Assembly (NCBI RefSeq): GCF_002976435.1
Contig: NZ_PUGF01000003.1
Location: forward strand, 62,001 to 126,000
Length of the DNA stretch: 64,000 nucleotides
Direction of reading: 5' to 3'
Source of the DNA: Solimicrobium silvestre
GTDB taxonomy: Bacteria > Pseudomonadota > Gammaproteobacteria > Burkholderiales > Burkholderiaceae_D
The notes below the pieces were generated by a model that was not told the origin of the DNA, searched no databases, and was given only the letters and a program-made list of their open reading frames with translations. Positions 24,857 through 39,762 of this stretch are shown piece by piece; the stretch's first letter is position 1; each line of letters begins with the position of its first letter. The position numbers were made by a program, and so were the translations under genes.

Positions 24857-25312
24857 ATGAAGGAGTTGAAATTGACAGAAGAAAATTCTTGGAAAGCAGC
24901 ATTGTATTTTTCTCGGATTGCGTTGGCAGCAGCTTTCCTTTCTGCTGTTGCAGACCGTTTTGGCTTATGGGGCAAGATGGGTGAACTGGGCGTTTCTTGG
25001 GGGTCGATGGCGGGCTTTTATCCGCATGTCGCAAAACTGTCGCCCTGGTCGCCAGCTGCCTTTATTCCGGCACTGGCCTGGTTGATCACCATCCTCGAAG
25101 CGCTGCTCGGCATTTTCCTGCTGCTCGGTATTCAAGTACGTAAAACAGCCTTGTTCAGCGCCCTGCTCTTGCTACTTTTTGCAATGAGCATGATGGCATT
25201 TCAAAGCCTTAAGTTGTCATTGAATTTTAGCGTTCTTACTTGCGCTGCCTGCGCCGTGTTCGTCTACTTGGCAAGCAATACCCAAGCACGCGAATTTGGC
25301 AGGGCGCGCTAA
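24857..25312 (+). CDS. DoxX-family membrane protein
   Basis: A 151-residue inner-membrane protein with four hydrophobic segments in the DoxX pattern (first helix ALYFSRIALAAAFLSAVADRFG, then helices in the middle and C-terminal thirds). DoxX proteins act in thiol and respiratory redox balance or as partners of oxidoreductases, with no single reaction known. It lies between a MocR regulator and an AhpD-like gene and is probably co-transcribed with the latter (57-base gap). Confidence 0.78.
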   Translation: MKELKLTEENSWKAALYFSRIALAAAFLSAVADRFGLWGKMGELGVSWGSMAGFYPHVAKLSPWSPAAFIPALAWLITILEALLGIFLLLGIQVRKTALFSALLLLLFAMSMMAFQSLKLSLNFSVLTCAACAVFVYLASNTQAREFGRAR

Positions 25313-25369
25313 TTGCGATGTTATTCATCGCGTTTTTTCCATTAAACAGTGTGATATCAGGAGTTATTT

Positions 25370-25801
25370 ATGAGCAATCTGCGTCTACCTTATAACGAAT
25401 TGTCCCCCGAGTTACTCAAAGGATTCCGTCAAGTCAAAATTGAATTAGAAAAAAGCCCACTCGGTTTGCCGCTGATCGAATTGGTCTATATGCGTATTTC
25501 GCAAATCAATGGCTGTTCCTACTGTTTGAATCTGCATGGTGAATCTCTGCGCAAACATGACACCCCGCAACGGCGCATAAATGAATTGGCCGGCTGGCGT
25601 GTCAGCGTGCAGTTTTCCGCTAAAGAAAAAGCTGCGCTGCAATGGACTGAAGCATTGACGCATGTGTCGACAACTAACGCGGCCGATGCGTTCTATGAAC
25701 CGTTAAAGGAACATTTTAGCGACGTTGAAATTTCCGATCTCACGTTCGCCATTTCGTTGATGAATGCCTTCAATCGTTTGGCAATCGGCATGCGCCAGTA
25801 A
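25370..25801 (+). CDS. AhpD-like carboxymuconolactone decarboxylase-family protein
   Basis: The 143-residue helical protein carries the AhpD-type active-site motif in INGCSYCLNLHGESLRKHD, that is CxxC followed by the conserved His. AhpD-like proteins are thiol peroxidases or peroxiredoxin reductants. GGAG precedes the start. Its neighbours DoxX and MocR make a common small redox unit. The biosynthetic cluster begins 58 bases later on the same strand, so read-through is possible. Confidence 0.85.
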   Translation: MSNLRLPYNELSPELLKGFRQVKIELEKSPLGLPLIELVYMRISQINGCSYCLNLHGESLRKHDTPQRRINELAGWRVSVQFSAKEKAALQWTEALTHVSTTNAADAFYEPLKEHFSDVEISDLTFAISLMNAFNRLAIGMRQ

Positions 25802-25859
25802 AGTCTGATTGCGCATGGAATGTTTTTTTCGTTTGATTATTTGTGAATTGGATGGGTAA

Positions 25860-27611
25860 ATGGATATCGCTGTGAGATCTGAGGCTTGGGCCAAACTGTA
25901 CAACGACCCTGAACTGGGTGCGGGCAATTTTCTGTTCAAGGCTTTTGACGCCTATACAGATACGGAAAGCATTTTTCTGCATCTGGAAAAGCCGTATATC
26001 TCGCCCTCCGGCGCTTCCCATACTTCCTTCAGTTTAAATACCTTGTGTGAAGTTGTTGCTCAATTGGCCGCATGGTATGTGCAAAAAGACGTCAAACAGG
26101 GCAATTACGTCTGCCTGTATTTGGGCGATGGCATTGCCTCCTTCTTACACTTTCTGGCCTTGAATAGTCTCGCTTGCGTGCCGGTTTTGATCAACGGCAA
26201 TCTGCGGCCAGATATAGCGGCTCTGTATGCCGACCTTAATCGTTTCTCAGTCTTTGTACATGATCGCGAAACCGCCACGCGCTGGCAACTCGACGCAGTT
26301 TTTGGCGCAACGCGCCGGCTCGATGCCGGGTTCAAGGAAGGCGTAGTAGTGCCGCTGGCCGATTTGTGCAAAGATCTTTGGCCGGCACCACGCCATGCCG
26401 ATGACACCATCATGATTTGCCATAGTTCTGGCACCACCGGTGTGCCAAAGGCAGTGCTGTTCGGGCATGCGCAATTTTTTAATGGCAAGCGCGAGCGGCT
26501 TCAAAGCTTTGTTGAAGATCCGAGCGACAAACTCGCTACCGCTATGCCGACCACGCATGCAGCCGGTATCAGTTATCTAATGACGGCCGTCCTGCTACAG
26601 CTTCCTACCTTGTCCTTGAATACGCAAACCGGCCCGATGGTGGCTACTCTACTGGCGAGCTTTCAGCCGACGATCGTAACGGCATTTCCCCAGACCTATG
26701 CTTCATTTGCCGAGGCGGGGCTGCCCGATGCTTACTTCAAGTCGATACGACGTTTTTACAATACCGGTGATTCCGCCCACGAGGCGCATATCGCTCAATT
26801 ACTACGCTTGGCACCGGATGCGCGCTTTACCGATATGTTCGGCGCTTCTGAATTAGGCATGTCCCAATTTTTCAAGGTTTCCACCGTCGGCTCTACCACG
26901 TCGGTACGTTCAGTTGGCAAACCGGCCGCCTATGCGCATTGCGCAATTCTGGCCCCGGACGGCAAGGAACTACCCGATGGCACGCCCGGCTATTTTGGCG
27001 TGCACTCACCCACCGTCACGCCTGGCTATTATGGACAGCCGCACTTAACTGCAATGACAACACTGAATGGTTATTGGCTGACTAGCGACGTCGGCCTCCG
27101 TATGGCCGATGGTGAATTTATCCATCTTGACCGGGCGGTTGATGTCGTCGATTCTTTTATTATCGGCAAACCAGCCTACACCCTATTACTTGAAGAGCAC
27201 CTGCTCAAACTACGGGACATCTTTGATGTAACGGTAGTGGGTATTCCACGCGGGCCGACTCGCGAAGAGGCGCTGCTGATATTAGTACGTCCAAATGCTG
27301 CCGCTAACGCCATCTCGGCCGAACAGATATTGCGACATACATTGCAATGCTATCCATTCCAGGGAATGGCTTCATTACCTGAATATTGCGTCTGCATTGG
27401 CATACTCGAGCCAGACTTCGTACTGCCTCTGGGTTCAACCGGCAAAGTGCTCAAGCGCGTTATTCGCGATAATTTCTGGGCCTGGCAGCGCGAGTTCGAT
27501 GAACAGCAACGCGATAAATTAGGCGAGCTGTTGTGGAATCAGGATGCGGATCTATCGCTCCTGCCAAGCCTGCCTGCGCGCTCATTGCTCGAATACGTGA
27601 TGACGGCCTGA
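25860..27611 (+). CDS. ANL-superfamily acyl/aryl adenylating enzyme (CoA-ligase-like)
   Basis: The 583-residue protein has both ANL domains: the P-loop-like [17 protein letters not shown], a middle region with [22 protein letters not shown], and a C-terminal lid with the catalytic Lys in [10 protein letters not shown]. It should activate a carboxylate as the adenylate, then probably as the CoA thioester. The substrate is unknown and it differs clearly from the second ligase at 35142. It starts the cluster and ends four bases before the paaA-like start, so it is co-transcribed with the epoxidase genes. Confidence 0.8.
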
Positions 27612-27615
27612 TGCT

Positions 27616-28587
27616 ATGAGTGCCGTGATGAACGATAACATGCCGTCGCTGGAGCAAGCCTTCCAGCAACAAATAGATAGTAAATGCAAGGTCGAGCCTC
27701 AAGACTGGATGCCTCCCGCCTATCGCCAAAGTCTGACCCGGCAAATAGCGCAGCATGCACATTCAGAATACGTCGGCATGCTGCCGGAAGCAGCATGGAT
27801 TACGCGCGCACCCACCTTGCAGCGCAAATCGATCTTGTTAGCGAAAGTACAGGATGAAGCCGGGCATGCCCAGTATTTGTACGCCGCTCTCGAAACATTG
27901 GGCGTTGGGCGTGAACAGGCCTATTTGCAATTGCTGAACGGAGCAGCAAAATATCTCAACATATTCAACTATCCAGCCATGAATTGGGCCGACGTTGGCA
28001 TGATCGGCTGGCTCACCGATGGCGCAGCAATTGTCAACCAAGTGCCACTTTCACGCAGTTCGTACGGGCCATATGCAAGGGCAATGATACGCATCTGCCA
28101 GGAAGAAAGTTTTCACCATCGGCAAGGCTTCGATTTAATCAGAACGATGACCGAGGGCACACCGCAGCAACGTCAGATGGCGCAGGATGCACTTGACCGC
28201 TGGTGGTGGCCGACCTTAATGGTGTTCGGCCCTCCCGATGCCGACTCACCGCATTCTCAACGTTCTATGCAGTGGGGCATCAAATTGTTTTCCAACGACG
28301 AGCTGCGCCAAAAATTCATCGACCAAACGGTCCCGCAGGTTCACTACCTGGGCTTGCGCGTACCTGACCCTTGTTTGAAATTAGACCGCGAAAGCGGCCA
28401 CTACAAGATTGGCCCGATCGATTGGGACGAATTCAAACGCAGCATTAATGGCCAAGGCATGTGCAACCAAGATCGCATTCAGGCTCGCAACAAGGCGTGG
28501 GAAGACGGCAGCTGGGTGCGGGAAGCAACCGCTGCCTACGCCGACAAACAAGCCGCTTTAAAAACTGAAGGGAACGTCAATGTCTGA
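27616..28587 (+). CDS. paaA: PaaA-like catalytic subunit of a CoA-thioester epoxidase
   Basis: This 323-residue diiron protein closely follows PaaA of the 1,2-phenylacetyl-CoA epoxidase: [15 protein letters not shown], the iron ligands in [18 protein letters not shown] and [12 protein letters not shown], and [15 protein letters not shown]. PaaA inserts one oxygen atom from O2 into the aromatic ring of a CoA ester. Subunits B, C, D and E follow with overlapping ends. No later phenylacetate genes are present. The neighbouring anthranilate-forming genes suggest an aminobenzoyl-CoA or other aryl-CoA substrate rather than phenylacetyl-CoA, which is inference. Confidence 0.92.
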
Positions 28588-28861
28588 TGCGCAATTATGG
28601 GAAGTTTTTGTACGCAGCCAAAACGGTTTGGCGCATCGTCATATCGGCAGCGTGCGGGCCAGCGATGCGCAATCGGCATTGCAGCATGCGCGTGATGTCT
28701 ATATGCGACGCGGCGAAGGCATCAGCATCTGGCTGGTTGCGTCCAAGTATCTCGTGATCAGTCCGCCCGATGAGCGCGCTGCATGGCTAGCTTCGTCTGA
28801 GGACAAAGGGTTCCGACTGCCGACTTTTTTTTCCGTACCAGAAGGAGTGCAATACCTGTGA
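28580..28861 (+). CDS. paaB: PaaB-like structural subunit
   Basis: A 93-residue PaaB protein ([40 protein letters not shown]). In the known enzyme PaaB links PaaAC heterodimers in the epoxidase complex. It overlaps the paaA end by eight bases and shares four bases (GTGA) with the paaC start, so the set is co-translated. Confidence 0.92.
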
Positions 28862-29628
28862 ATGCCGTAGCCGAATCGAATGAGCAGTTAAGCCAATACC
28901 TGCTACGTATGGGAGATAACTGCCTGATATTGTCGCAACGTCTATGCGGTTGGACGGGCCACGGCCCGACGCTCGAAGACGATCTGGCACTGAGCAACGT
29001 TGCGCTGGATTTACTCGGACAAGCCCGCCTTTGGCTTGACTACGCCAGCTCCTTGCATCCAACGAAACGCAGCGAAGATGCACTGGCATATTGGCGCGAT
29101 GCCCATGAATTTCGCAATCTGCTATTACTTGAGCAACCGAACGGTAATTTCGCCGATACTCAGGTGCGCCAATTCTTTTTCGACAGTTGGCATTTCCTGG
29201 TGCTGACTGCCTTGTCGAACTCGACAGATGAAAAGGTGGCGGCCATCTCGACCAAAGCCTTGAAAGAAGTGGACTACCACGTGCGGCGCAGCAGCCATTG
29301 GATGCTCAGGCTCGGCGGTGGAACCGAGCTTAGCCGTTCAAAGCTAATTCTGGCGCTGGAACAGCATTGGAACTATGTCGGCGAGCTGTTCGAAATGGAT
29401 GAACTGGAACAAGAAATGCACGCATGCGGCATTGGTTGCGACTTGGGCGCGCTGCATGCCGAGTGGCTTGCTTACGTGAACGATGTGCTGGGCAAAGTAG
29501 AACTTGCGCTACCTTCGCGCACACCATTTCAGTCCGGCGGAAAACGCGGAAAACATGGGGAGCACCTGTTATCCATGCTAATGGAAATGCAGTATCTGCA
29601 ACGCGTCCATCCGGGGGCGCAATGGTAA
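28858..29628 (+). CDS. paaC: PaaC-like structural subunit
   Basis: The 256-residue ferritin-like protein matches PaaC (GDNCLILSQRLCGWTGHGPTLEDD, LGQARLWLDYA, KEVDYHVRRSSHWMLRLGGGTE). PaaC is the non-catalytic partner that holds PaaA in its active shape. It starts with GTG inside the paaB stop (GTGA) and its own stop lies inside the paaD start (overlap 29622-29628). Confidence 0.92.
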   Translation: MNAVAESNEQLSQYLLRMGDNCLILSQRLCGWTGHGPTLEDDLALSNVALDLLGQARLWLDYASSLHPTKRSEDALAYWRDAHEFRNLLLLEQPNGNFADTQVRQFFFDSWHFLVLTALSNSTDEKVAAISTKALKEVDYHVRRSSHWMLRLGGGTELSRSKLILALEQHWNYVGELFEMDELEQEMHACGIGCDLGALHAEWLAYVNDVLGKVELALPSRTPFQSGGKRGKHGEHLLSMLMEMQYLQRVHPGAQW

Positions 29629-30128
29629 ATCAGCAAGCAAGTACTGAGCGCATCTGGGAATGGTTATCCGGCATTCCCGATCCGGAAATGCCCTTTCTGT
29701 CGATCGTCGATCTTGGCATTGTGCGCGACGTGCATTGGGAAGAAGAACAGTTGCGCATCGTCGTCACGCCGACCTATAGCGGCTGCCCGGCTAAATCACA
29801 CATCGACGCCAGCATTCGCAATACCTTACTCGACCGCGGCATCGAACACCTCGCACTAGAAACACGGCTGTCACCGGCCTGGAGCACAGATTGGCTTGGC
29901 GATGTAGCCAAAGCCAAACTGCTGGCGGCTGGAATCGCACCGCCGATGGCATCCGAAGTTCCTATGCGCAAACTCGAATACCGTGCCTGGTCAATCGCTA
30001 CGCCAAGTTGCCCGCTGTGCGGCTCGGCGTCGACCACCGTACGCGGCGAATTTGGCTCAACCTTATGTAAGTCGTTGTATGTGTGCGGTGACTGCGCTAA
30101 CCCGTTCGAACACTTCAAGTGTTTCTAA
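29622..30128 (+). CDS. paaD: PaaD-like protein (MIP18/DUF59 domain plus zinc ribbon)
   Basis: From the ATG at 29622 the product has 168 residues: a MIP18-type domain (GIPDPEMPFLSIVDLGIVRDV, TPTYSGCPA) and a C-terminal Cys4 ribbon (CPLCGS...YVCGDCANP). In phenylacetate systems PaaD is needed for epoxidase activity, presumably to help mature the Fe-S or diiron centres. A longer reading from 29424 lies inside paaC and is rejected. It overlaps paaC by seven bases. Confidence 0.9.
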   Translation: MVNQQASTERIWEWLSGIPDPEMPFLSIVDLGIVRDVHWEEEQLRIVVTPTYSGCPAKSHIDASIRNTLLDRGIEHLALETRLSPAWSTDWLGDVAKAKLLAAGIAPPMASEVPMRKLEYRAWSIATPSCPLCGSASTTVRGEFGSTLCKSLYVCGDCANPFEHFKCF

Positions 30129-30150
30129 ATTTTTCATAGAGCGAGCTATC

Positions 30151-31230
30151 GTGCCACAATTTTTTCCATTGACGATTTCGCACGTGCAGCATGAGCCTGG
30201 CGATGCTTTGGTGTTGACCTTGGCAGTCCCCGCAGACTTGCGCGAGCATTTTACATACATCCAAGGGCAGCATTTGACCTTGCGCGCCTATATTGACGGC
30301 AAAGAAACCCGGCGTGCTTACTCGCTCTGCAATGCGGTGGGAGAGCCGTCGCTGCAACTGGCAATTAAGAAAGTGGCTGGTGGCGCATTTTCAAATTGGG
30401 CTCATCAAACCCTGCAACGCGGCACTCAGATTGATGTCATGCAACCGGCAGGGCACTTCAATACGACGCTAGATGCAAAGCACGCGCGCCACTATGCCGG
30501 TTTTGTCGCAGGTAGCGGAATCACTCCTTTGCTGTCGATCATTAAGACCAGCTTGCAACAAGAACCGGACAGCCGCTTCACGCTGGTTTATTGCAACCGC
30601 ACGCTGTCGTCCATGCTCTTTCGGGAACAGTTGGCCGATTTAAAAGACCGCTTTCCGCAGCGCCTCTCTCTCATTTATTTGTTCACGGCTGAGGCGCAGG
30701 AGATCGAATTACTCAACGGGCGATTAAGCACCGAGCGCTGCCGGGCATTACTGCAGCACTGGCTGCCGTCAGCGTCAATCGACTATGCCTTCGTTTGCGG
30801 CCCAGCCGCGATGATGCAAGCCGTCGCGGCTGCGTTGAGCGAGGCTGGGTTGCCGGACGAGCGGATTAAGCTCGAATATTTCGCCGCTGCCGGTTCAACA
30901 ATAACTCCCGATTCTGCGCCAGCTCAAACCGAGAGTTTGACGACCCTGACCAGCGCTGTCGAAATGACCTTGATCGTGGATGGCGTACAACGCCAATTGC
31001 GGCTCGATAAAGCGGTAGACAACATCCTCGATGCCGCCCTGGAAGCGGGTATCGACCTTCCCTATTCATGCAAAGGCGGGGTGTGCGCAACCTGCCGTTG
31101 CAAGGTGCTGCAAGGAGAAGTCGCGATGACAGGAAACTATGCACTCTCAGCGAACGAACTGGCCGCAGGCTATGTACTAAGTTGCCGCAGCCGGCCGCTG
31201 ACGCGCCGTTTAGTGCTCGATTTTGATTAG
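30151..31230 (+). CDS. paaE: PaaE-like reductase (FAD/NADPH + 2Fe-2S ferredoxin)
   Basis: From the GTG at 30151 the 359-residue product has a ferredoxin-NADP reductase part (FAD motif RRAYSLCN, nucleotide site GFVAGSGITPLLSI) and a C-terminal plant-type 2Fe-2S domain with CKGGVCATCRCK and a late Cys in YVLSCRSRP. It passes electrons from NADPH to the PaaA diiron centre. The earlier ATG at 29983 would overlap paaD by about 145 bases and is rejected. An MFS gene follows after 53 bases. Confidence 0.92.
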   Translation: MPQFFPLTISHVQHEPGDALVLTLAVPADLREHFTYIQGQHLTLRAYIDGKETRRAYSLCNAVGEPSLQLAIKKVAGGAFSNWAHQTLQRGTQIDVMQPAGHFNTTLDAKHARHYAGFVAGSGITPLLSIIKTSLQQEPDSRFTLVYCNRTLSSMLFREQLADLKDRFPQRLSLIYLFTAEAQEIELLNGRLSTERCRALLQHWLPSASIDYAFVCGPAAMMQAVAAALSEAGLPDERIKLEYFAAAGSTITPDSAPAQTESLTTLTSAVEMTLIVDGVQRQLRLDKAVDNILDAALEAGIDLPYSCKGGVCATCRCKVLQGEVAMTGNYALSANELAAGYVLSCRSRPLTRRLVLDFD

Positions 31231-31283
31231 GCATCAAGCTCACCATATTTTGAACAATATAACTATAGAGATGAGGTAGGACA

Positions 31284-32477
31284 ATGAAAGACACTACGGG
31301 TTTATCACGCTATCAGCACTGGCTGTTTTGCCTCGCCACCGGGTTTTCGGTAGCGGCGGTCGTGTACCACCAGGCGATGACGCAGATGATTGCGGCCAGC
31401 TTCCAGGTGCCAACCACTTCGCTGTGGGATTTATCGGTCGCCACGCAGTTTGGCTATGGCATTGGCTTGATCCTGGGTCTGCCCTTGGGCGATATGGTCA
31501 TGCCACGCAAGTTGATCCCGACGGTGGTGACCAGCCTCGGTCTGGTACTGCTACTGGTGGGCGTATCGTCAAACTTGGCCGCAATGACGGCGCTATGTTT
31601 TCTGGCAGGTGTCTTGTCAATTGGAGGGCAGCTATTGATCGCATACAGCGCCAAAACCGCCGCGGCCACTACCGCTGGCCGACCAAAGATCGTCGACAAC
31701 CTGCTTTCAGCCCTATTCGCTGGCCTGCTGCTGGCGCGCGTACTGGGCGGATGGGGTGCTGAAAAAATTGGCTGGCGTCAGGTTTATTTGCTGGCTGGCG
31801 GCGTGACCGTGCTCCTAGGTTTGTCTTTATTTTATAGCGTGCGCCGTCAAACCCAGATCGACCCTAACTTGCGCTACGGCCAGATGCTGCGGCGGCAAGC
31901 GCAATTGTGGCAAAGCCTGCCGGAACTGCGGCGTCTCGCTTTGGTCGCCGCCTGCTTTTTCGCTGCCTTAAACGGTATCTGGGCCAACCTGGCTTCCTTA
32001 ACCCATAGCTCCCTGAATTGGAGCGCGTCTCAAACCGGCCTGCTCGCATTTACCGCCGTGGTAGCACTGTGGGCGCCGGCGCTAGTACGCCGTTTGCAGC
32101 AGCGGTTGCACTGGAGTGGTGTCATCGTCTTGCTGGGATTATGTATGGGCGCAGTGTCGCTAGCTGGCTATTGGTTCGGCAGCAGTGTGTTCATGATCAT
32201 CATCTTCCTGATCGTATCCGATGTCAGCGTACGTTCGGTTCATGTGATTTCCCAAGGCAAGGTTCTAAGTATCGACCCTGCTGCTGCATCGCGATTGAAC
32301 AGTTTATTTATGACCGTATTTTTCATTGGCGCAGCGTTGGGTTCATGGCTGGGTGGTATCGCAGTGCGCCATTTCTCCTGGGCTGGAATGTACCTGTTTC
32401 CGCTCGTTTGCGCTCTGCTGGGAGTGCTGTTGCTCCGCATACGGGACGGTCAATTGTCCTTTTCCCGCGCGCTTTAA
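31284..32477 (+). CDS. MFS transporter, probable exporter
   Basis: The 397-residue inner-membrane protein has about 12 hydrophobic segments and the major-facilitator loop pattern (LGLPLGDMVMPRKLIP). GAGGTAGG precedes the ATG. In the middle of a biosynthetic cluster it is the most likely route by which the product leaves the cell, or the means of self-protection. Its last codons form part of a terminator hairpin. Import of a precursor is the alternative. Confidence 0.8.
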   Translation: MKDTTGLSRYQHWLFCLATGFSVAAVVYHQAMTQMIAASFQVPTTSLWDLSVATQFGYGIGLILGLPLGDMVMPRKLIPTVVTSLGLVLLLVGVSSNLAAMTALCFLAGVLSIGGQLLIAYSAKTAAATTAGRPKIVDNLLSALFAGLLLARVLGGWGAEKIGWRQVYLLAGGVTVLLGLSLFYSVRRQTQIDPNLRYGQMLRRQAQLWQSLPELRRLALVAACFFAALNGIWANLASLTHSSLNWSASQTGLLAFTAVVALWAPALVRRLQQRLHWSGVIVLLGLCMGAVSLAGYWFGSSVFMIIIFLIVSDVSVRSVHVISQGKVLSIDPAAASRLNSLFMTVFFIGAALGSWLGGIAVRHFSWAGMYLFPLVCALLGVLLLRIRDGQLSFSRAL

Positions 32478-32501
32478 AGAGGTAGCGCGCGGGTTTTTTT
32501 T
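32464..32501 (+). terminator. Rho-independent terminator after the MFS gene
   Basis: CCCGCGCGC (32464-32472) pairs perfectly over nine bases with GCGCGCGGG (32485-32493), followed by eight T. It overlaps the 3' end of the MFS gene and divides the cluster into two transcription units. Confidence 0.8.
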
Positions 32502-32555
32502 ATCGATGTCCCAATTCGTCCTGGACGATTTAAATTTTAAAAGAAAGAGGAATGT

Positions 32556-33785
32556 ATGACGCTATTAATGGAAACCGAGGCAGTCACAATACTGCAAAGC
32601 ACGGCACCGGCCGGCATGAGTTTGATGTGGAATAACTGGCTGCAAGAAGACGCCTTGCAAGACCTGGTGCAGCATCCGCTGTTATTAGCTTTAGGTCGCA
32701 ACGAGGCTAGCCTTGGCGTGCTCAAAACTTTGCTGGTGCAGCATAGTCATTATTCACGCAACTTCACGCGTTATCTGTGCTCGCTACTGGGGCAGTTAAC
32801 CGAAGCCAGCGACATTATGGCCCTGCTTGAAAATCTGCGTGAAGAAATGGGCGTGGACGGTATGGGCGACATGACGCATGCCGAGATGTTCCAGCGCACC
32901 TTGCGAATTGTCGGTGTAACGCCGGACGAGCATGCAGCGCTGCCAGCGACCACGGCGATGGTGCAGACGATGATGGGCTATTGCCAGTCGAACGACCCGT
33001 TGGCCGGACTGGCCGCTATGTGCCTGGGTGCAGAAGCAATCGTCCCGCTGGTCTACCGTCCGATATTGCAGGCATTGCAGCACTTTGGCTACGGCAAAGA
33101 CGCCACAGAATTCTTTAGATTGCACATTGAAGAAGACGAAGATCACGCTATCACCATGCTGAACATTTTGCGCCGCTTGACCCTCGACAAACCGGAACGG
33201 CGTGAACTGGCAATTCAGATCGGGCGCGAATTAATCGGCAAGCGAGTGGCCATGTTCGATTCAATCTGGAACAACGTCCAAAACAGCAGCGCAACACCGG
33301 CCGCCAGTACGCTAGCACCAGTGAACGGCACGCGATTTTCCTCAGCCGATTTTGGCAACGTGCCAGCCCGCTTAAAAGTGACTATGCCGGAACGGTTGAA
33401 GCATCCAATGGTCATGCAAACGAACAATGCTGCCGATCAAGCCTTCTCTTCCGATCGCAAGCACAAGGTTCATATCGTCGATCTGCCGACCAATACCATC
33501 AGCATGACCATCGGACGCCTCGACGTGGCCGAGTCGACACGCTTACATCGGCATAACTACGAAACCGTCATGTACATACTCGCCGGCAGCGGCTATTCAG
33601 TGGTCGGTGAACGCCGCGTCCCGTGGCAGGCTGGCGACGCCGTCTATATACCGGTCTGGGCTGCGCATCAGCATGTTAATACCGGTGATGTCGAATGCGC
33701 CTACCTTGCTTGCGAAAATGCCCCGCTGCTGCAAAACCTTGGCGGCATTGCGTTACGCGAGGAACTGGGTGCGCTAACCACCTGA
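32556..33785 (+). CDS. Heme-oxygenase-like diiron oxidase (HDO) fused to a cupin domain
   Basis: The 409-residue protein has two parts. Residues about 20-225 form a helical HDO/TENA-like domain with the diagnostic last-helix ligand motif HxxxDxxH (His190, Asp194, His197), plus Glu160, His108 and Glu96/97 as further ligands. Residues about 295-400 are a cupin with HRHNYE and, later, GDAVYIPVWAAHQHVN, both metal motifs intact. HDOs include N-oxygenases, desaturases and oxidative decarboxylases of secondary metabolism. A fusion with a cupin is uncommon. In this cluster it could oxidise the amine or the ring of the anthranilate-derived intermediate, which is inference. Confidence 0.75.
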   Translation: MTLLMETEAVTILQSTAPAGMSLMWNNWLQEDALQDLVQHPLLLALGRNEASLGVLKTLLVQHSHYSRNFTRYLCSLLGQLTEASDIMALLENLREEMGVDGMGDMTHAEMFQRTLRIVGVTPDEHAALPATTAMVQTMMGYCQSNDPLAGLAAMCLGAEAIVPLVYRPILQALQHFGYGKDATEFFRLHIEEDEDHAITMLNILRRLTLDKPERRELAIQIGRELIGKRVAMFDSIWNNVQNSSATPAASTLAPVNGTRFSSADFGNVPARLKVTMPERLKHPMVMQTNNAADQAFSSDRKHKVHIVDLPTNTISMTIGRLDVAESTRLHRHNYETVMYILAGSGYSVVGERRVPWQAGDAVYIPVWAAHQHVNTGDVECAYLACENAPLLQNLGGIALREELGALTT

Positions 33786-33849
33786 ACACTTATTTGAAGA
33801 TGGGCAATGAGCGAATTTTTCTTACTACATTAAATAGGAAGTGGCGCAA

Positions 33850-35145
33850 ATGTTCTCTAACCGCACACCATGGAGCCCCAGCAGTTGGCAATCCATGTCG
33901 CAACGTCAGTTGCCTCACTATCAGGACGACGCTGCGTTGCAGCAGGTATTAGCAAGGATTCAAAGCTATCCGCGTCTGGTGGCCATAAGTGAAATCCGCC
34001 GTCTCACCTCGCGCATGGCAAGGGTCGCACATGGGCGTGGCTTTATTTTGCAAGGTGGTGATTGCGCCGAAAGCTTCTCTGATTTTTGCCCGAAAATCAT
34101 CCGCCAGCATTATCATCTTCTGCAGCAAATGGCAGCGATGATCGGCGCGGCAAGCCATCAGCCGGTGGTGCGCATTGGCCGCATCGCAGGGCAGTACGCC
34201 AAGCCGCGCAGTAGTGCTATGGAATGCGTCGCTGGGCAGGAACTGCCTAGCTATCGCGGTGACATGATCAATGGCGCGGAGTTCCAGGAGCAGGCGCGCC
34301 AGACCGATCCGCTGCGCATGGAAACAGCTTATTTCAAGGCCGCCGGTAGTCTTAATTACTTGCGCAGTTTGAATAGTGAAGCCAATGCCAGCAGAGCGGG
34401 AAGCTACTTCACCAGCCACGAAGCATTGCTGCTGCCGTATGAACAATCAATGCTTGAACAAGATGCAATGGGTAATTGGTATTGCGGCTCCGGTCACTTT
34501 TTATGGATCGGCGAACGTACCCGGGCACTGGATGGCGCCCACGTCGAATTCTTGCGCGGCGTGTGTAATCCGATTGGCGTCAAGCTCGGCCCGACGGTAA
34601 GTCGCGAAGAGCTGATACGCCTGATCGATGTGCTCAATCCGTTCAATGAAGCCGGTCGACTTACCTTGATCGTACGTAATGGCGCGGCCCATATCGATCG
34701 CTTACCCAAACTGCTGGAAGCGATTCAATTGGAAGGCCGCGAAGTTTTATGGATGTGCGACCCGATGCACGGCAACGGCATTCAGACAGCGGACGGTATC
34801 AAGACCCGCGACTTCGCATCGATTCAAGCTGAATTAAATGGCTTTCTTGATGCCCATCGCAAAATCGGCACCCATCCCGGAGGCGTGCATCTCGAATTGA
34901 CCGGTTTGAACGTCAGCGAATGCCTCGGCGGCCCGTCAAAAGTGAGCGAAGCCGATCTGGCGACCGGCTACCTGAGCGCTTGCGACCCCAGATTAAATCC
35001 GGAACAAGCCATGGCGTTGACGGCGACTCTGGTGAACCAGCTCGGCTTGGCGTCTGAGCGTGCAACAAGTCCGATTGCGCCTAAAGCACAGGTCGGCTTG
35101 CCCGCCGTTCATGCTCAGCACCTGGACTGGGAGAGCCGTGTATGA
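33850..35145 (+). CDS. Class II DAHP synthase (3-deoxy-7-phosphoheptulonate synthase)
   Basis: A 431-residue type II DAHP synthase: WSPSSWQSM, QGGDCAESF, GRIAGQYAKPRSS, MWCDPMHGN and HPGGVHLELTG. It condenses phosphoenolpyruvate with erythrose 4-phosphate, the first shikimate step. I prefer the ATG at 33850 (AGGAA nine bases upstream) to the GTG at 33841. Extra type II copies in secondary-metabolite clusters raise chorismate supply, and trpE/trpG-like genes follow. Its stop overlaps the next ligase start (ATGA). Confidence 0.92.
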   Translation: MFSNRTPWSPSSWQSMSQRQLPHYQDDAALQQVLARIQSYPRLVAISEIRRLTSRMARVAHGRGFILQGGDCAESFSDFCPKIIRQHYHLLQQMAAMIGAASHQPVVRIGRIAGQYAKPRSSAMECVAGQELPSYRGDMINGAEFQEQARQTDPLRMETAYFKAAGSLNYLRSLNSEANASRAGSYFTSHEALLLPYEQSMLEQDAMGNWYCGSGHFLWIGERTRALDGAHVEFLRGVCNPIGVKLGPTVSREELIRLIDVLNPFNEAGRLTLIVRNGAAHIDRLPKLLEAIQLEGREVLWMCDPMHGNGIQTADGIKTRDFASIQAELNGFLDAHRKIGTHPGGVHLELTGLNVSECLGGPSKVSEADLATGYLSACDPRLNPEQAMALTATLVNQLGLASERATSPIAPKAQVGLPAVHAQHLDWESRV

Positions 35146-36704
35146 CGAACATCAATTTAGCCGCACATTTCATTGTCAGCAAGCGCAAATCCGATGCGCT
35201 GTGCTTTGTCGGGCCCGATATATCACTGAGCTATCGGCAGCTAGACTGTGCGGTTCGCTGCCAAGCACATTGGCTTGAGCAGCAAGGTGTGCGTGCCGAT
35301 CAACGCATTGCCATTGGCTTGGATGACGGTGCGGAATTGGCCGTGCTGTTTTTTGCAGCATTGGCGCTTGGCGCCCTGCCCTTGCTAATCAATCCTCGGC
35401 TTGATGCGCCAGCCATGCGCCATATTTTCGATGATTCCGATCCGGTAATTGTATTCGGCCAGCACGAGCAAAAAACAGTCTTAACAGAGGTAATCGCTAG
35501 CGCAGCGCATCCAACCCACCTTCGCTTGATCAAAGCGGGTATGCATCGGGATTGGATCACGCCAACGGCCGAAGGCTCAGCATGGAATGGCTTTTTAATG
35601 CGACCGCTTACTGCACCGGCCTTCATTCAATATACGTCCGGCACCACTGGTCAAGCCAAGGGCGTGCTGCACAGTGCCGCATCCATCATCTCCTCTTGCG
35701 CTGGCTTCGCCGCTGGCCAGTTGCGCATCAATTCCAGTGATTTGCTGTATTCCGTGCCCAAAGCATTTTTTGGCTATGGCATGGGCAACAGCTTGTTCTT
35801 CCCCCTTTATTTGGGTGCATGCGCGTTGCTCGATCCAGCCTGGCCCACGGCCGAACTGGTCGCAGCCAACCTCAAACGCTACCGGCCCAACGTGCTATTC
35901 GCCGTGCCAACCATGTACCGTTTGCTGCTTGAGGAAGGATTGCAGCCCAGCAATTGCTCCTTGCGTCTGGCTTTTTCGGCTGGTGCGCCTTTGGCCGAAT
36001 GCATCAGCGCGATGTGGCAGCAACGCTTTGGCTTCGACCTGCACGATGGAATCGGTGCCACTGAGCTATGCCATGTATTTGCTACGACCTACCCAGACCG
36101 ACTGCGCCGAGGCAGCGTTGGCCGGATGCTCGACGGCTGGCAAGCCCGCATTGTCGATGAACAAGGAGCGCTGGCGGCCGACGACGAGCCAGGCGTGCTG
36201 CTGGTAAAAGCACCGTCGATGGCGCTTTGCTATTGGAGAAGACCGCAAGACGATGCGCTTAAATTCGTCGACGGTTGGTATCGCACGGGCGATCTATTTA
36301 CTACGGATAGTGACGGCTTCCTGTATTTCCATGGCCGCGAAGATGAGCGCTTCAAAGTATTCGGGCGCTGGGTCATGCCGAGCGAAGTCGAGTCCTTGCT
36401 CTCGCAGCATGCAGGCGTACTCGGCGAGTGCTATTTGGTGCCTGGACGCGACGCAACGGGGGAAGATCGTCCGGTGCTGTACATCCGCGCGAATGACGAC
36501 TTTGAACAACAGGCACGCTTTGCCCTGGCGACTCTAAAAACGCATCTGGAGAGTTTCAAGTATCCGGCCAAAGTACTGCCACTGGAAACATTACCCATGA
36601 CCGCTAACGGCAAGCTCAATCGGCGTGCGCTGGCAAGTCAGGCTAGCAACGCTTTGCAAGCAGTAATGCCGACGCAACACGAAGAGAGCGATTTATTATG
36701 TTGA
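35142..36704 (+). CDS. Benzoate-CoA ligase-family aryl-CoA ligase (candidate anthranilate-CoA ligase)
   Basis: The 520-residue ANL enzyme resembles benzoate-CoA ligases: YTSGTTGQAKGVLHSA, the AFFGYGMGNSLFFPLYLGA segment, IGATELCHVF, WYRTGDLF and the C-terminal lysine in MTANGKLNRRAL. It should convert an aromatic acid to its CoA thioester. Placement between DAHP synthase and anthranilate synthase genes, with overlaps on both sides, makes anthranilate the obvious candidate substrate. The resulting anthraniloyl-CoA would suit the PaaABCDE-like epoxidase. Confidence 0.85.
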   Translation: MTNINLAAHFIVSKRKSDALCFVGPDISLSYRQLDCAVRCQAHWLEQQGVRADQRIAIGLDDGAELAVLFFAALALGALPLLINPRLDAPAMRHIFDDSDPVIVFGQHEQKTVLTEVIASAAHPTHLRLIKAGMHRDWITPTAEGSAWNGFLMRPLTAPAFIQYTSGTTGQAKGVLHSAASIISSCAGFAAGQLRINSSDLLYSVPKAFFGYGMGNSLFFPLYLGACALLDPAWPTAELVAANLKRYRPNVLFAVPTMYRLLLEEGLQPSNCSLRLAFSAGAPLAECISAMWQQRFGFDLHDGIGATELCHVFATTYPDRLRRGSVGRMLDGWQARIVDEQGALAADDEPGVLLVKAPSMALCYWRRPQDDALKFVDGWYRTGDLFTTDSDGFLYFHGREDERFKVFGRWVMPSEVESLLSQHAGVLGECYLVPGRDATGEDRPVLYIRANDDFEQQARFALATLKTHLESFKYPAKVLPLETLPMTANGKLNRRALASQASNALQAVMPTQHEESDLLC

Positions 36705-38254
36705 ATCAAGAACAATTTCTCGAATACGGTAAACAGGGTTTTAATCTGGTGCCGCTGTGGCAAATACTGCCGCTACCTCCCCAATTGGAAGCGCTTAGTC
36801 TTTACCGTGTCTTGTGCATGCAAGGTAACGATTATCTGTTCGAAACGGGGCAGTGGGAGGGCGGGAATTTTCAGCGCCACTATTCCATCATTGGGCTACC
36901 AGCAGCCGAGCGCATCGAGATCGGAGAGCATTGGTTCAAGCATATAAAAGAGGGAGAAATCATACAGGAGCTCAGCACGAGCGAACCCCTGGACGAACTG
37001 GAACGTTTACTGGCTAGCTTCAGAGTGCCGCAAATTGCAGCACTACCGCCATTTTCTGGCGGCTTGTTCGGCTACTTCGGATTCGAAACCACTCGCTTGA
37101 TCGAGCCACGCCTGGCGCGCCAACCGCGCAAACCGTCCGGGCTCGACGTGCCTGATGTGGTACAGCTAGTCAGCAAGGAATTGCTGGTATTCGACCATCG
37201 CCAGTCGCAACTATTTTGCATCGTGCATGACGATCCTGGCGTTGCCGACAGCTATTTACGCACGCACAATCGGCTCTATGCCTTGTGCGAACACGTGCTA
37301 CATAAGATGACAGAGATCGCTACAAACTTTCCTGCGCAAACATATGCGCCAAAGACTACTACGCACGCCGCGCCAGCGCTCCATGATGAGCTTACTTACG
37401 CATTTCCCCGTGCGCAATTTGAGCAGGCGGTGGGAGCCATCAAGACATATATCGCGGCTGGCGACGTGATGCAGGTAGTGCTGTCGCAACGCATGAGCCG
37501 CTCCTTGTCTTGCGACGCGCCGACCCTATATCAAGCGCTACGCAGCTTGGGTCAGACGCCGTACAGTTACATCGTCGATCTGGGTCAATTTCAGGTGGTG
37601 GGTGCCTCGCCAGAAATGCTGGTGCAGCGCCAAACCAATACGATGACCAGCAGGCCGATGGCCGGTACCCGCCGACGCGGTGCGGATGCCTCGGCCGATC
37701 TCCAGCTCACACAGGAATTGCTGGCCGATCCTAAGGAAATCGCGGAACACATGATGCTGCTTGATTTAGCCCGCAATGATCTGGGGCGCGTGGCCGAGGT
37801 CGGCAGCGTACAGGTCAAGAATATTTTGTCGGTCGAATATTTTTCCCACGTCATGCATATCGTCTCGACGGTGACTGGTTTGGCACCATCACAATTGAGC
37901 GGCCTCGAAGTGTTCAAGAGCACCTTCCCGGCCGGCACCCTCAGTGGCGCCTCGAAAATTCGTGCACTTGAAGTCATCGCCCAACTTGAACCGCATGCAC
38001 GCGGAATCTACGGTGGTGCCATTGGCTGCATGGACTGGCACGGCGGAGTAGATCTTGCCATCGCCATCCGTACTGGCGTTCTCCAGGCAGGGATCTTGCA
38101 GGTTCAGGCCGGTGCCGGGGTGGTGCAAGATTCCGTGGCCGAACGTGAGTGGCAAGAAACGATAGAAAAGAGCCGGATGATGCTGCTTGCAGCGCAATTG
38201 GCTCAAAGTTGGCAGCAAGAGATGACCGTTCTGGAGGACCCCGCATGCATTTAA
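36698..38254 (+). CDS. trpE: Anthranilate synthase component I-like chorismate enzyme
   Basis: A 518-residue chorismate-binding enzyme with the full C-terminal catalytic domain: YIVDLGQFQVVGASPEML, RPMAGTRRRG, AEHMMLLDLARNDLGRV, FPAGTLSGASKIRA and GIYGGAIG. Ala in PMAGT fits anthranilate (or ADIC) synthases, while PabB has Lys there. The N-terminal tryptophan-sensing motif LLES is replaced by LFET, so feedback inhibition by tryptophan may be lost. It overlaps the ligase before it and the amidotransferase after it. This is probably a dedicated pathway copy rather than the housekeeping trpE, since trpD and trpC are absent. Confidence 0.88.
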   Translation: MLNQEQFLEYGKQGFNLVPLWQILPLPPQLEALSLYRVLCMQGNDYLFETGQWEGGNFQRHYSIIGLPAAERIEIGEHWFKHIKEGEIIQELSTSEPLDELERLLASFRVPQIAALPPFSGGLFGYFGFETTRLIEPRLARQPRKPSGLDVPDVVQLVSKELLVFDHRQSQLFCIVHDDPGVADSYLRTHNRLYALCEHVLHKMTEIATNFPAQTYAPKTTTHAAPALHDELTYAFPRAQFEQAVGAIKTYIAAGDVMQVVLSQRMSRSLSCDAPTLYQALRSLGQTPYSYIVDLGQFQVVGASPEMLVQRQTNTMTSRPMAGTRRRGADASADLQLTQELLADPKEIAEHMMLLDLARNDLGRVAEVGSVQVKNILSVEYFSHVMHIVSTVTGLAPSQLSGLEVFKSTFPAGTLSGASKIRALEVIAQLEPHARGIYGGAIGCMDWHGGVDLAIAIRTGVLQAGILQVQAGAGVVQDSVAEREWQETIEKSRMMLLAAQLAQSWQQEMTVLEDPACI

Positions 38255-38859: not shown

Positions 38860-38926
38860 TTTTATTTAACGAAGCGCAGGCCGGCAGGTCTGTTCTGAAC
38901 TACTGCTTTTAATCTACGAGGATTTC

Positions 38927-39373
38927 ATGCGTATTACTTGTTTTGAAAAAAATTACCCGATCCGATTTTCTCATTGCGATCCGGCCGGTATTGTTTATTT
39001 CCCCCAGTATCTGGTCTTAAGCAATTGGCTGGTCGAAGACTGGTTCACAGAAGGATTGGGTATTGATTTTTCCCACTTCATCTGTGCCCGGCGCTTGGGG
39101 CTGCCGATCGTCAAGCTCGAGAATGAATTCCTGGCTCCGTCGCGCCAGGGCGAGTTACTCACGTTTCGCTTGGAATTACAGAACCTGGGGCGGCGCTCAC
39201 TGGAAGTGTTGATCAGCGCACGGTTTGGCGACCAGGTCCGGATGCAGAGCAAGCAGGTAATGGTAATAACTTCGCTAGAAAGCGGCAAATCAATTGTTTT
39301 CCCCGATGACGTGCGGCAGCAGCTGCAGCGGTTTACAGAACAGACAAAACTAACAGAAATGGTGGCTTCATAA
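38927..39373 (+). CDS. 4-hydroxybenzoyl-CoA thioesterase-family hotdog protein
   Basis: The 148-residue hotdog protein has the 4HBT motif FSHCDPAGIVYFPQYL with the catalytic Asp. It should hydrolyse an aromatic acyl-CoA. In this cluster it may release the modified ring acid from CoA, or proofread stalled thioesters as thioesterases do in tropone-type pathways. Its stop shares one base with the RidA start (TAATG at 39371-39375), so the two are co-translated. Confidence 0.88.
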   Translation: MRITCFEKNYPIRFSHCDPAGIVYFPQYLVLSNWLVEDWFTEGLGIDFSHFICARRLGLPIVKLENEFLAPSRQGELLTFRLELQNLGRRSLEVLISARFGDQVRMQSKQVMVITSLESGKSIVFPDDVRQQLQRFTEQTKLTEMVAS

Positions 39374-39762
39374 TGCAAATCTTACAACCGCCCGATTGGG
39401 TTCGTCCACGCGGCTATGCCAATGGTGTCGTAGCCAAGGGAAGTTTAGTCTTTACCTCCGGCCAGCTTGGATGGGACGGGCAAGGTCAATTCCAAAGCGA
39501 GCGCTACGCGGATCAGGCGCGCCAAGCTTTACAAAATATTGTGACCGTACTGGCGCAGGCCGGAGCCAAGCCGGAACACATCGTGCGCCTGACCTGGTAC
39601 GTGACTGACCGTGCGGCCTATTTAGAACAGGCTAAAGAGGTGGGGCAATCGTATCGGGAGTTGATCGGCCATTTTCCAACCATGAGCGCGTTTCAAGTGA
39701 GCGCCTTAATGGTCGACGGGGCCAAGGTTGAAATCGAGGCGACAGCCGTAATTCCCGATTAA
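39373..39762 (+). CDS. RidA-family (YjgF/YER057c/UK114) protein
   Basis: A 129-residue RidA-like protein (FTSGQLGWDGQG, ARQALQNIVTVLAQAGA, VRLTWYVTD, and MSAFQVSALMVDGAKVEIEATA). The last part contains Val/Leu where archetypal RidA has the substrate-binding Arg (R-V-A-V-x-L-P), so it may belong to a non-archetypal Rid subgroup. RidA proteins hydrolyse reactive enamines and imines. An amino-substituted epoxide or dearomatised ring would produce such species, which makes its presence here meaningful. Confidence 0.85.
   Translation: MQILQPPDWVRPRGYANGVVAKGSLVFTSGQLGWDGQGQFQSERYADQARQALQNIVTVLAQAGAKPEHIVRLTWYVTDRAAYLEQAKEVGQSYRELIGHFPTMSAFQVSALMVDGAKVEIEATAVIPD

What the first reader, a model, noticed from the sequence alone, without database searches (positions are those of the whole stretch)
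32556..33785. Heme-oxygenase-like diiron oxidase fused to a cupin
The HDO half keeps the last-helix motif HxxxDxxH (His190, Asp194, His197) seen in N-oxygenases and oxidative decarboxylases, and the cupin half keeps both metal motifs. Two oxygen-active metal sites in one chain suggest a two-step oxidation, perhaps of an aryl amine. I do not know a characterised fusion of this kind.
Basis: partly seen in the sequence, partly recalled or inferred. Interest (0 to 1): 0.7.

Follow-up and report, generated by a model that had tools for sequence, protein, structure and literature searches.

The report
Diiron-cupin fusion in a diazo-type cluster
A bacterial protein with two different iron-site domains sits in a conserved gene cluster that appears to turn a simple aromatic amine into a reactive nitrogen-nitrogen (diazo) compound, and it may be the missing source of the oxidised nitrogen.

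Summary
In detail: 32556-33785 encodes one 409-aa chain, a CADD-type heme-oxygenase-like diiron (HDO) domain plus a gentisate-dioxygenase-like cupin. All six HDO ligands are invariant in 36 aligned rows (window included); the three cupin histidines nearly so. The claim that no such fusion is characterised is wrong: SznF (streptozotocin) has the same HDO-cupin order. But this is a separate lineage: no phmmer hit to SznF, no SznF-type N-terminal domain. It lies in a biosynthetic operon: anthranilate synthase, aryl-CoA ligase, complete PaaABCDE-type epoxidase, thioesterase, RidA, MFS transporter, and an ANL enzyme whose best structural matches are the nitrite-using diazotase CmaA6 and Tri17. The core is conserved in six other bacteria. 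In 26 of 58 loci, related HDO genes sit near aminobenzoate-type synthesis genes; HDO and cupin occur fused, adjacent or apart. In the host genome I found no nitrosuccinate lyase and no molybdopterin nitrate reductase. Most likely the fusion oxidises an amine nitrogen in an aryl-diazo pathway, possibly supplying nitrite; substrate and product are inferred, not shown. New variant of a known kind, with a directly testable role.

The parts
32556..33785 (+). HDO-cupin fusion protein, 409 aa
   Evidence: single match in own genome at E up to 0.001
32622..33284 (+). HDO domain, residues about 23-243; ligands E97 (32844), H108 (32877), E160 (33033), H190 (33123), D194 (33135), H197 (33144)
   Evidence: Pfam; CADD structural match Z 25.5, rmsd 2.2, 206 residues, model 23-238; ligand columns; correspondence to CADD E81/H88/E142/H174/D178/H181 read from the alignment (CADD numbers counted by hand)
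33285..33461 (+). linker, residues about 244-302; 251-280 of low confidence
   Evidence: in G275 (L016) HDO and cupin are separate ORFs and the HDO stop falls in the matching stretch
33462..33743 (+). cupin domain, residues about 303-396; ligands H331 (33546), H333 (33552), H371 (33666); invariant E336
   Evidence: Pfam; gentisate dioxygenase 3bu7 match 314-397; columns
25860..27611 (+). Lig1: ANL (AMP-binding) enzyme nearest to nitrite-using diazotases / N-nitrosylases
   Evidence: AvaA6 diazotase HMM 272 bits, next best 143, curated cut-off 975 not reached; other ANL matches in this genome at most 66 bits; CmaA6 Z 48.6, Tri17 Z 46.8, next 41.4; adenylation motifs kept
27616..28587 (+). PaaA-type epoxidase subunit
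   Evidence: TIGR02156 476 bits, above cut-off; the next match in the genome has 28% identity
28580..28861 (+). PaaB-type subunit
   Evidence: TIGR02157 above cut-off
28858..29628 (+). PaaC-type subunit
   Evidence: TIGR02158 above cut-off
29622..30128 (+). PaaD-type subunit (start estimated)
   Evidence: TIGR02159 above cut-off
30160..31230 (+). PaaE-type reductase (start estimated)
   Evidence: TIGR02160 414.7 bits, just under cut-off 420.8
31284..32477 (+). MFS transporter, probable exporter (direction inferred)
   Evidence: Pfam MFS_1; in 6 of 6 orthologous clusters
33841..35145 (+). class II DAHP synthase
   Evidence: Pfam DAHP_synth_2 514.6 bits; not detected in L025 and L027
35142..36704 (+). 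Lig2: benzoate-CoA-ligase-like, probably anthranilate-activating (inferred)
   Evidence: TIGR02262 335.8 bits, under cut-off 375
36698..38254 (+). TrpE-type anthranilate synthase component I, an extra copy
   Evidence: TIGR00564 427 bits, best model, under cut-off 517.7; another TrpE-like gene at 44% identity on contig C4
38245..38859 (+). TrpG-type glutamine amidotransferase
   Evidence: TIGR00566 above cut-off
38927..39373 (+). 4HBT-type thioesterase
   Evidence: Pfam 4HBT_2
39373..39762 (+). RidA-family protein
   Evidence: Pfam Ribonuc_L-PSP
24857..25312 (+). small membrane protein (called DoxX-like by eye)
   Evidence: only a sub-threshold MauE hit; detected in 5 of 6 orthologous clusters
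25370..25801 (+). CMD/AhpD-family protein
   Evidence: Pfam CMD; detected in 3 of 6 orthologous clusters, and near the HDO-cupin of X. bovienii and Sessilibacter
22939..24390 (+). MocR-type regulator
   Evidence: NF052282 above cut-off; in 6 of 6 orthologous clusters, there downstream on the other strand

Best explanation
The protein is an N-oxidising two-metal enzyme of a biosynthetic cluster that makes an aryl compound with an N-N (diazo-type) group. Proposed route: DAHP synthase, TrpE and TrpG make anthranilate; Lig2 makes anthraniloyl-CoA; PaaABCDE epoxidises it, probably giving 3-aminosalicyl-CoA by the 1,2-shift known from antimycin; the thioesterase frees the acid; Lig1 uses ATP and nitrite (or an equivalent) to diazotise the amine; the MFS protein exports the product. 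The HDO domain would use its diiron-peroxo species to oxygenate an amine nitrogen, and the 3-His cupin would carry out the following rearrangement or release, so that the chain supplies the oxidised nitrogen. Shown: domain anatomy, conserved ligands, operon content, conservation, Lig1's closest relatives. Inferred: every reaction, the substrate, and the order of steps.
For: Core of the operon found in 6 named genomes. Lig1's best fold matches are CmaA6 and Tri17, set apart from ordinary aryl/acyl-CoA ligases; by sequence they come second to fourth, after 9xb8, a chain named only FadD. The AvaA6 HMM is its top model and singles it out within this genome. HDO and cupin keep company as fused, adjacent or same-locus genes. 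HDO relatives lie near three kinds of aminobenzoate-type synthesis genes in 26 of 58 loci. HDO + cupin + such genes + AvaA6-like ligase recur in X. bovienii (382 bits), P. khanii (259) and Sessilibacter (393). HDO + cupin is the architecture of SznF, and HamA/HamB are a separate HDO/cupin pair of a diazeniumdiolate cluster (PMC11705231 passages). A 3His/3carboxylate HDO can be an N-oxygenase (HrmI; PMC13108848 parts 1 and 3; Z 24.8). Paa-like AntHIJKL turns an anthraniloyl thioester into 3-aminosalicylate (PMC3869250 passages).
Against: No activity, metal or product data. By sequence the HDO is nearest to CADD-type 4-aminobenzoate synthases and BesC rather than to N-oxygenases, and the cupin is nearest to ring-cleaving dioxygenases. 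HDO relatives also occur without a recognised diazotase: beside EctB-type transaminases, or with a class II aldolase in place of the cupin; 26 of 58 loci showed neither aminobenzoate-type nor strong EctB-type genes with my queries, some of them on short contigs. Of eight other Lig1-like proteins typed, AvaA6 was the top model in six (narrowly in L062, a fragment in L045), not in L060, and the L042 fragment had no hit. HamB, the cupin of the ham cluster, is reported non-essential for valdiazen, and fragin was still detected without it (PMC11659414 passages). Lig1 is far under the AvaA6 equivalog cut-off.
Confidence: 0.45

Rival explanations
1. SznF-like action in cis: HDO and cupin both act on the cluster's own aryl amine (3-aminosalicylate or its CoA ester), giving a nitroso, nitro or N-N product directly; Lig1 acts at another step with nitrite from elsewhere.
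For: SznF precedent (passages); aminobenzoate context; domain order and three-His cupin as in SznF.
Against: SznF's cupin rearranges a dihydroxyguanidine, which holds several nitrogens; a single aryl amine has one. Little sequence kinship with SznF beyond the fold.
Confidence: 0.25
2. Oxidative ring opening: the HDO hydroxylates or decarboxylates the aminobenzoate and the cupin cleaves the ring as gentisate or 5-aminosalicylate dioxygenases do; RidA then hydrolyses an enamine.
For: Cupin best hits are gentisate 1,2-dioxygenase 3bu7 and the 5-aminosalicylate dioxygenase model; RidA in the operon.
Against: The operon appears to build the ring from chorismate; a diazotase-like Lig1 has no role here; in L029, L043, L048 and L075 the HDO and cupin sit with EctB-type transaminase genes and none of my aromatic-route queries hit.
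Confidence: 0.17
3. A catabolic phenylacetate-type operon that acquired extra genes; the HDO-cupin is a detoxification enzyme.
For: Complete PaaABCDE set; CMD/AhpD and RidA are common in stress and catabolic operons (general knowledge).
Against: No PaaG, PaaZ or beta-oxidation gene among the operon genes scanned; extra DAHP synthase, TrpE and TrpG; core kept as a block in six other bacteria.
Confidence: 0.06
4. A CADD-like self-sacrificing 4-aminobenzoate synthase with a fused cupin.
For: CADD is the closest HDO by fold and the closest in the profile search.
Against: The sacrificed Tyr27 aligns with L43 (L, I, V or M in 36 of 36 rows) and Lys152 with I170 (no Lys among 36).
Confidence: 0.02

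Closest known systems
SznF/StzF (streptozotocin) and its HDO-cupin relatives GrbD, ChmM
   Same: HDO domain followed by a C-terminal cupin; for SznF also six HDO ligands and a three-His cupin; found in biosynthetic clusters concerned with N-N chemistry
   Different: No phmmer hit to SznF at E up to 1 and only 17.9 bits with an HDO profile; no room for SznF's N-terminal domain; HDO nearer to CADD, cupin nearer to gentisate dioxygenase; aminobenzoate rather than arginine context. ChmM is reported to lack HDO ligands
CADD / NePabS 4-aminobenzoate synthases
   Same: Closest solved HDO fold (Z 25.5, 20% identity) and the same six ligands
   Different: Sacrificial Tyr and Lys absent; fused cupin; biosynthetic operon
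Gentisate and 5-nitrosalicylate 1,2-dioxygenases (cupins)
   Same: Second cupin domain of 3bu7 aligns over 314-397 with the three His; 8ch4 is also matched
   Different: One cupin domain here, and E336 where 3bu7 has Asn (alignment)
HamA + HamB (fragin/valdiazen cluster)
   Same: HDO and cupin genes together in an N-N cluster (passages); the DUF3050 model, the family of HamA structure 9vwb, matches the window HDO above its cut-off (28.6 against 22.2 bits; Z 20.8)
   Different: Separate genes, NRPS-bound valine pathway; distant sequence
CmaA6/AvaA6 diazotases and Tri17 (for Lig1)
   Same: 31% and about 27% identity over most of the chain; P-loop, Mg-binding Glu and catalytic Lys kept
   Different: Below the AvaA6 equivalog cut-off; no nitrosuccinate-lyase-type gene found in the genome
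AntHIJKL of antimycin
   Same: Multicomponent oxygenase, likened to phenylacetate catabolism, acting on an anthraniloyl thioester (passages)
   Different: Antimycin uses tryptophan-derived anthranilate on a carrier protein; product here not shown

Membership tests
HDO superfamily (3His/3carboxylate) | Heme-oxygenase-like seven-helix fold | tested here: met
   AF2 model; CADD Z 25.5, HrmI 24.8, UndA 23.0
HDO superfamily (3His/3carboxylate) | E, H, E and HxxxDxxH ligands | tested here: met
   36 of 36 HDO-bearing rows
SznF-type HDO-cupin N-nitrosating enzymes | HDO followed by C-terminal cupin | tested here: met
SznF-type HDO-cupin N-nitrosating enzymes | Three cupin His (H407, H409, H448 in SznF) | tested here: met
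   H331, H333, H371; SznF numbers from PMC11705231 passages; no residue alignment to SznF was available
SznF-type HDO-cupin N-nitrosating enzymes | Seventh ligand (fourth carboxylate, 3H/4C) | not testable with these tools
   no residue-level alignment to SznF and no model coordinates in hand
SznF-type HDO-cupin N-nitrosating enzymes | N-terminal dimerisation domain before the HDO | tested here: not met
   HDO fold starts at residue about 23 of 409; SznF's three-domain layout from PMC11705231 passages
SznF-type HDO-cupin N-nitrosating enzymes | Sequence homology above noise | tested here: inconclusive
   no hit at E up to 1 with phmmer; 17.9 bits, E 0.014, HDO part only, with profile A1; not among the best 60 of 113 shown with A2
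SznF-type HDO-cupin N-nitrosating enzymes | N-hydroxylation of a guanidine and N-nitroso formation | not testable with these tools
   needs biochemistry
CADD/PabS 4-aminobenzoate synthases | Sacrificial Tyr27 and Lys152 (CADD numbering) | tested here: not met
   L43 and I170 in the alignment; roles from PMC13108848
Gentisate 1,2-dioxygenase family | Two-cupin (bicupin) chain with three-His iron site (bicupin recalled; two matched stretches in 3bu7) | tested here: not met
   three His present but only one cupin domain
AvaA6/CmaA6/CreM diazotases (Lig1) | Reaches the curated AvaA6 HMM cut-off | tested here: not met
   top model, but 272 bits against cut-off 975
AvaA6/CmaA6/CreM diazotases (Lig1) | Catalytic motifs of adenylate-forming enzymes | tested here: met
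   SSGTTG, Mg-binding Glu, TGKVLKR (motif roles recalled)
AvaA6/CmaA6/CreM diazotases (Lig1) | Nitrite-dependent diazotisation | not testable with these tools
   needs biochemistry
ANS nitrous-acid pathway | Nitrosuccinate lyase (fumarase/aspartase superfamily, placement recalled) | tested here: not met
   own genome has three Lyase_1 matches, typed FumC, ArgH, PurB above equivalog cut-offs

The most novel reading that the evidence does not exclude
The HDO-cupin pair is a previously undescribed nitrous-acid (or nitroso-donor) generator that replaces the aspartate-nitrosuccinate pathway in proteobacterial diazo clusters: the HDO oxidises an amine to a nitro or nitroso level, and the cupin (or, in other clusters, a class II aldolase) releases the oxidised nitrogen for the adjacent diazotase. 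It would answer where nitrite comes from in diazotase clusters that lack CreE/CreD-type genes.
Probability: 0.25. Interest if true: 0.85.

Novelty: new variant of a known kind. Interest (0 to 1): 0.62.

Why it matters
About half of the ava-type diazotase clusters in one survey of actinomycetes (72 of 134; PMC10777205, passages) lack the two genes known to make nitrous acid, and that paper leaves an alternative route open. Here a diazotase-like enzyme sits with an HDO-cupin in a genome where I found neither a nitrosuccinate lyase nor a molybdopterin nitrate reductase. That makes the question directly testable with two purified proteins. A second HDO-cupin lineage, not visibly derived from SznF, would also suggest that this pairing is a recurrent solution for handling oxidised nitrogen, and the six orthologous clusters are a defined target for finding a reactive aryl metabolite.

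Tried and rejected
The first genome-contig scan with the single protein found nothing; an alignment query gave 58 loci. The viral scan gave one 42-base match of no value. PADLOC: no hit. Paper searches for the cluster or its product by Paa/anthraniloyl terms, isonitrile/aerocyanidin, organism, diazotase, 3,4-AHBA and diazo terms listed no paper that I could recognise as describing it; only this open-licence library was searched, four of the seven searches asked for at least three terms at once, and most listed papers were seen only as titles and abstract starts. An isonitrile idea (aerocyanidin, recalled) found no support. Comparison with HamB failed: the DUF3050 genes found in relatives had no cupin hit in the about 1.5 kb held on either side, so cupin kinship to HamB is untested. 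Self-sacrificing pABA synthesis was rejected on residues. Whole-genome tests for other nitrite sources covered only the Lyase_1 and Molybdopterin families; two NAD_binding_9 proteins stayed unnamed; NO synthase, ammonia oxidation and other nitrate reductases were not tested. Lyase_1 counts in other producers: 4 each for the genomes of L026, L028, L031, L035, but 5 for L023 and 6 for L027, none typed. The VIA list for the HDO-cupin model is filled by HDO chains, so it says little on the cupin.

Full report
What is there. The frame 32556-33785 (+) encodes 409 aa. Residues 58-220 match Haem_oxygenas_2 (104 bits) and 323-384 match Cupin_2 (48.8 bits), both over the curated cut-offs; weaker matches include TENA_THI-4 and DUF3050. 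NCBIfam places the HDO part nearest to the CADD family (47.8 bits) and the cupin nearest to 5-aminosalicylate 1,2-dioxygenase (45.2 bits), both far under their cut-offs. Against solved chains the cupin matches gentisate 1,2-dioxygenase 3bu7 (residues 314-397) and the HDO matches 4-aminobenzoate synthase 8va9 and 1rcw. The genome gave one match.

Metal sites. In the 45-row alignment A2 (36 HDO-bearing and 21 cupin-bearing rows, window included) E97, H108, E160, H190, D194 and H197 are the same in every HDO-bearing row. By the alignment they correspond to CADD E81, H88, E142, H174, D178 and H181 (numbers counted by hand). The cupin has H331 (20 of 21), H333 (21 of 22) and H371 (22 of 22), with an invariant E336 off the canonical glutamate place. 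The two residues that CADD sacrifices are replaced, Tyr27 by L43 and Lys152 by I170, so it is not a pABA synthase of that kind. AlphaFold2 gives mean pLDDT 86.3 and pTM 0.70, with two confident domains and a loose linker.

Known fusions. SznF/StzF is one: HDO central domain, C-terminal mono-iron cupin, N-nitrosation (PMC11705231 and PMC10849742, passages; PMC13108848, parts 1 and 3 of 6). Foldseek ranks SznF fifth, aligned over 385 columns with rmsd 17, which I read as both domains matching but placed differently. By sequence the two are not close: no phmmer hit at E up to 1 and 17.9 bits with an HDO profile. The window protein has no room for SznF's N-terminal domain. I therefore do not file it as a SznF member, while noting the same two-site layout.

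The operon. On one strand, from 24857 to 39762: a small membrane protein, CMD/AhpD, Lig1, PaaABCDE, MFS, HDO-cupin, class II DAHP synthase, Lig2 (benzoate-CoA-ligase-like), TrpE, TrpG, thioesterase and RidA, with a MocR regulator upstream. tblastn (E up to 1e-8) of 20 window genes against 64 loci shows the core (Lig1, PaaA-E, MFS, HDO, cupin, Lig2, TrpE, TrpG, thioesterase, RidA, MocR) in 6 of them: Chromobacterium haemolyticum, C. alkanivorans, C. alticapitis, Pseudomonas fontis, P. trivialis and Lonsdalea quercina. DAHP synthase was not detected in the two Pseudomonas, CMD/AhpD in three of the six, the membrane protein in one; the hydrolase at 39926 and the MBL protein at 40825 were detected in none within the held flanks. 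The genome has no second close PaaA (next 28%) and two further TrpE/PabB-family genes, so these copies look dedicated. Among 294 genomes of the window's family 7 gave any match at E up to 1e-10; only the window's own showed the whole fusion as one frame, and none of the four other same-genus genomes listed matched. A class-wide sample gave 5 of 369 at E up to 1e-20, two of them distant fusions. This patchiness suggests horizontal spread.

Lig1 points to N-N chemistry. Its top NCBIfam model is the AvaA6 diazotase at 272 bits, next 143; other ANL matches in the genome reach at most 66 bits. The closest solved chains by sequence are 9xb8 (258 bits, named only FadD, identity unknown to me), 8ztz (228) and 9bq0/8tf7 (187), then 73. 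Entry titles name 8ztz and 9ijf as diazotase CmaA6 and 8tf7 and 9bq0 as Tri17; these fill the first twelve Foldseek rows and the first four VIA rows (Z 48.6 to 46.1, against 41.4 for MenE and 37.4 for anthranilate-CoA ligase AuaEII). CmaA6 uses nitrous acid and ATP (PMC10777205, passages); Tri17 can form diazo compounds from anilines (PMC11705231, passages). The adenylation motifs are intact. Membership as an AvaA6 equivalog is not met (cut-off 975).

Relatives of the HDO. The profile scan returned 58 loci. With E up to 1e-10, 26 of 58 carry the cupin, 22 of 58 carry a class II aldolase, and none carry both (Fisher p about 1e-8, not corrected for shared ancestry); at a looser threshold Sessilibacter adds a 27th cupin. 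Aminobenzoate-type genes lie in 26 of 58: TrpE in 7, GriI- and/or GriH-type genes in 14, fused aminodeoxychorismate synthase in 5. Caveats: the GriH-type proteins typed score best as 3-dehydroquinate synthase II family and, like the BagB/BagC-type hits, mostly under cut-offs, so 3,4-AHBA synthesis is inferred from the pair; the synthase was typed in L051 only, the other four are 69-78% identical. For scale, the BagB/FevI aldolase family was found in 0 of 195 sampled genomes of the window's family at E up to 1e-15, although G202, a family member of another draw, has such a gene near its HDO. Another 6 of 58, plus a Pantoea plasmid, have an EctB-type transaminase (typed in L029, L043 and Pantoea). 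So the HDO family seems to track amine-bearing acids rather than one pathway. The remaining 26 loci gave neither with these queries, some on short contigs.

Fusion history. HDO and cupin are one chain in the window, L023-L029 and L031, and in a distant group (L021, L078, L079, and L022 = L080 in the tree); adjacent genes in nine loci, two of them with a 4-base overlap; and apart in the same locus in eight Photorhabdus. In the quick HDO tree the window clade has SH-aLRT 98 and the distant fused group falls elsewhere; long branches make the deep order unsafe. Fused, adjacent and same-locus pairings together are good evidence that the two domains work together.

Where would the nitrite come from? 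The known ANS route needs a nitrosuccinate lyase. The window genome (98.97% complete) has three Lyase_1 matches, typed as FumC, ArgH and PurB. Its three Molybdopterin-family matches are typed as formate dehydrogenase alpha, NuoG and, below cut-off, a DMSO/selenate-reductase-like protein; none reaches a nitrate-reductase cut-off. Exogenous nitrite, NO chemistry, missing sequence or an unrecognised enzyme remain possible. Against this background the HDO-cupin is the best candidate for a nitrogen-oxidising enzyme that I found in the operon.

Proposed working. An anthraniloyl thioester plus a Paa-type oxygenase gives 3-aminosalicylate in antimycin (PMC3869250, passages); 3-aminosalicylate shares the amino-hydroxy-benzoate core of the cremeomycin diazotase substrate (PMC11705231, passages). 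I therefore propose an ortho-diazo-type product, with the HDO-cupin providing oxidised nitrogen. The weakest link is the HDO-cupin reaction itself: by sequence its domains lean toward pABA synthase/BesC and ring-cleaving dioxygenases, and the family also occurs without any recognised diazotase. Overall confidence 0.45; the specific nitrite-generator reading 0.25. Mending the report against the calls changed wording and counts, not these odds.

Noticed in passing
L010:19938-21938 (Pantoea agglomerans plasmid NZ_CP143422.1): A related HDO (49% identity) is fused to an EctB-type diaminobutyrate transaminase; in Photorhabdus sp. CRCIA-P01 (L032:9932-13351) an HDO and a hit to this transaminase lie in one 1139-aa frame.
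   Followed up: partly
L054, L051, L065, L070 and others: In 22 of 58 loci a class II aldolase (PRK07090 type, typed in L054) sits beside the HDO instead of the cupin, never together with it; it may do the equivalent next step.
   Followed up: partly
L033, L036, L038, L041 against L035: The Photorhabdus HDO cluster may be decaying: the diazotase-like gene is whole in P. khanii and appears only as short matches elsewhere.
   Followed up: no
L011, L012, L013 (Gluconobacter, Hymenobacter, Chroococcidiopsis plasmids): Stand-alone close relatives of the cupin (51-57% identity) are each followed by a dihydrodipicolinate-synthase-family gene, a pair of unknown function in three phyla.
   Followed up: no
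L078:1-18982 (Sessilibacter corallicola): A distant HDO-cupin fusion with GriH/GriI-type genes, a diazotase-like ligase (393 bits to AvaA6), two CMD/AhpD genes, and, judged by eye from the translations, a halogenase-like, a PKS-like and two nitroreductase-like genes.
   Followed up: partly
L031:14299-15450 (Xenorhabdus bovienii): In the related cluster no Paa epoxidase gene was hit and a salicylyl-CoA 5-hydroxylase-like flavin monooxygenase is present, as if replacing it.
   Followed up: no
L029:9887-19120 (Pseudomonas fluorescens HKI0874): An HDO-cupin fusion heads a different cluster: transaminase with a glutathionylspermidine-synthase-like part, ThiF, TauD, GNAT, ATP-grasp and PurD-like genes.
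   Followed up: partly
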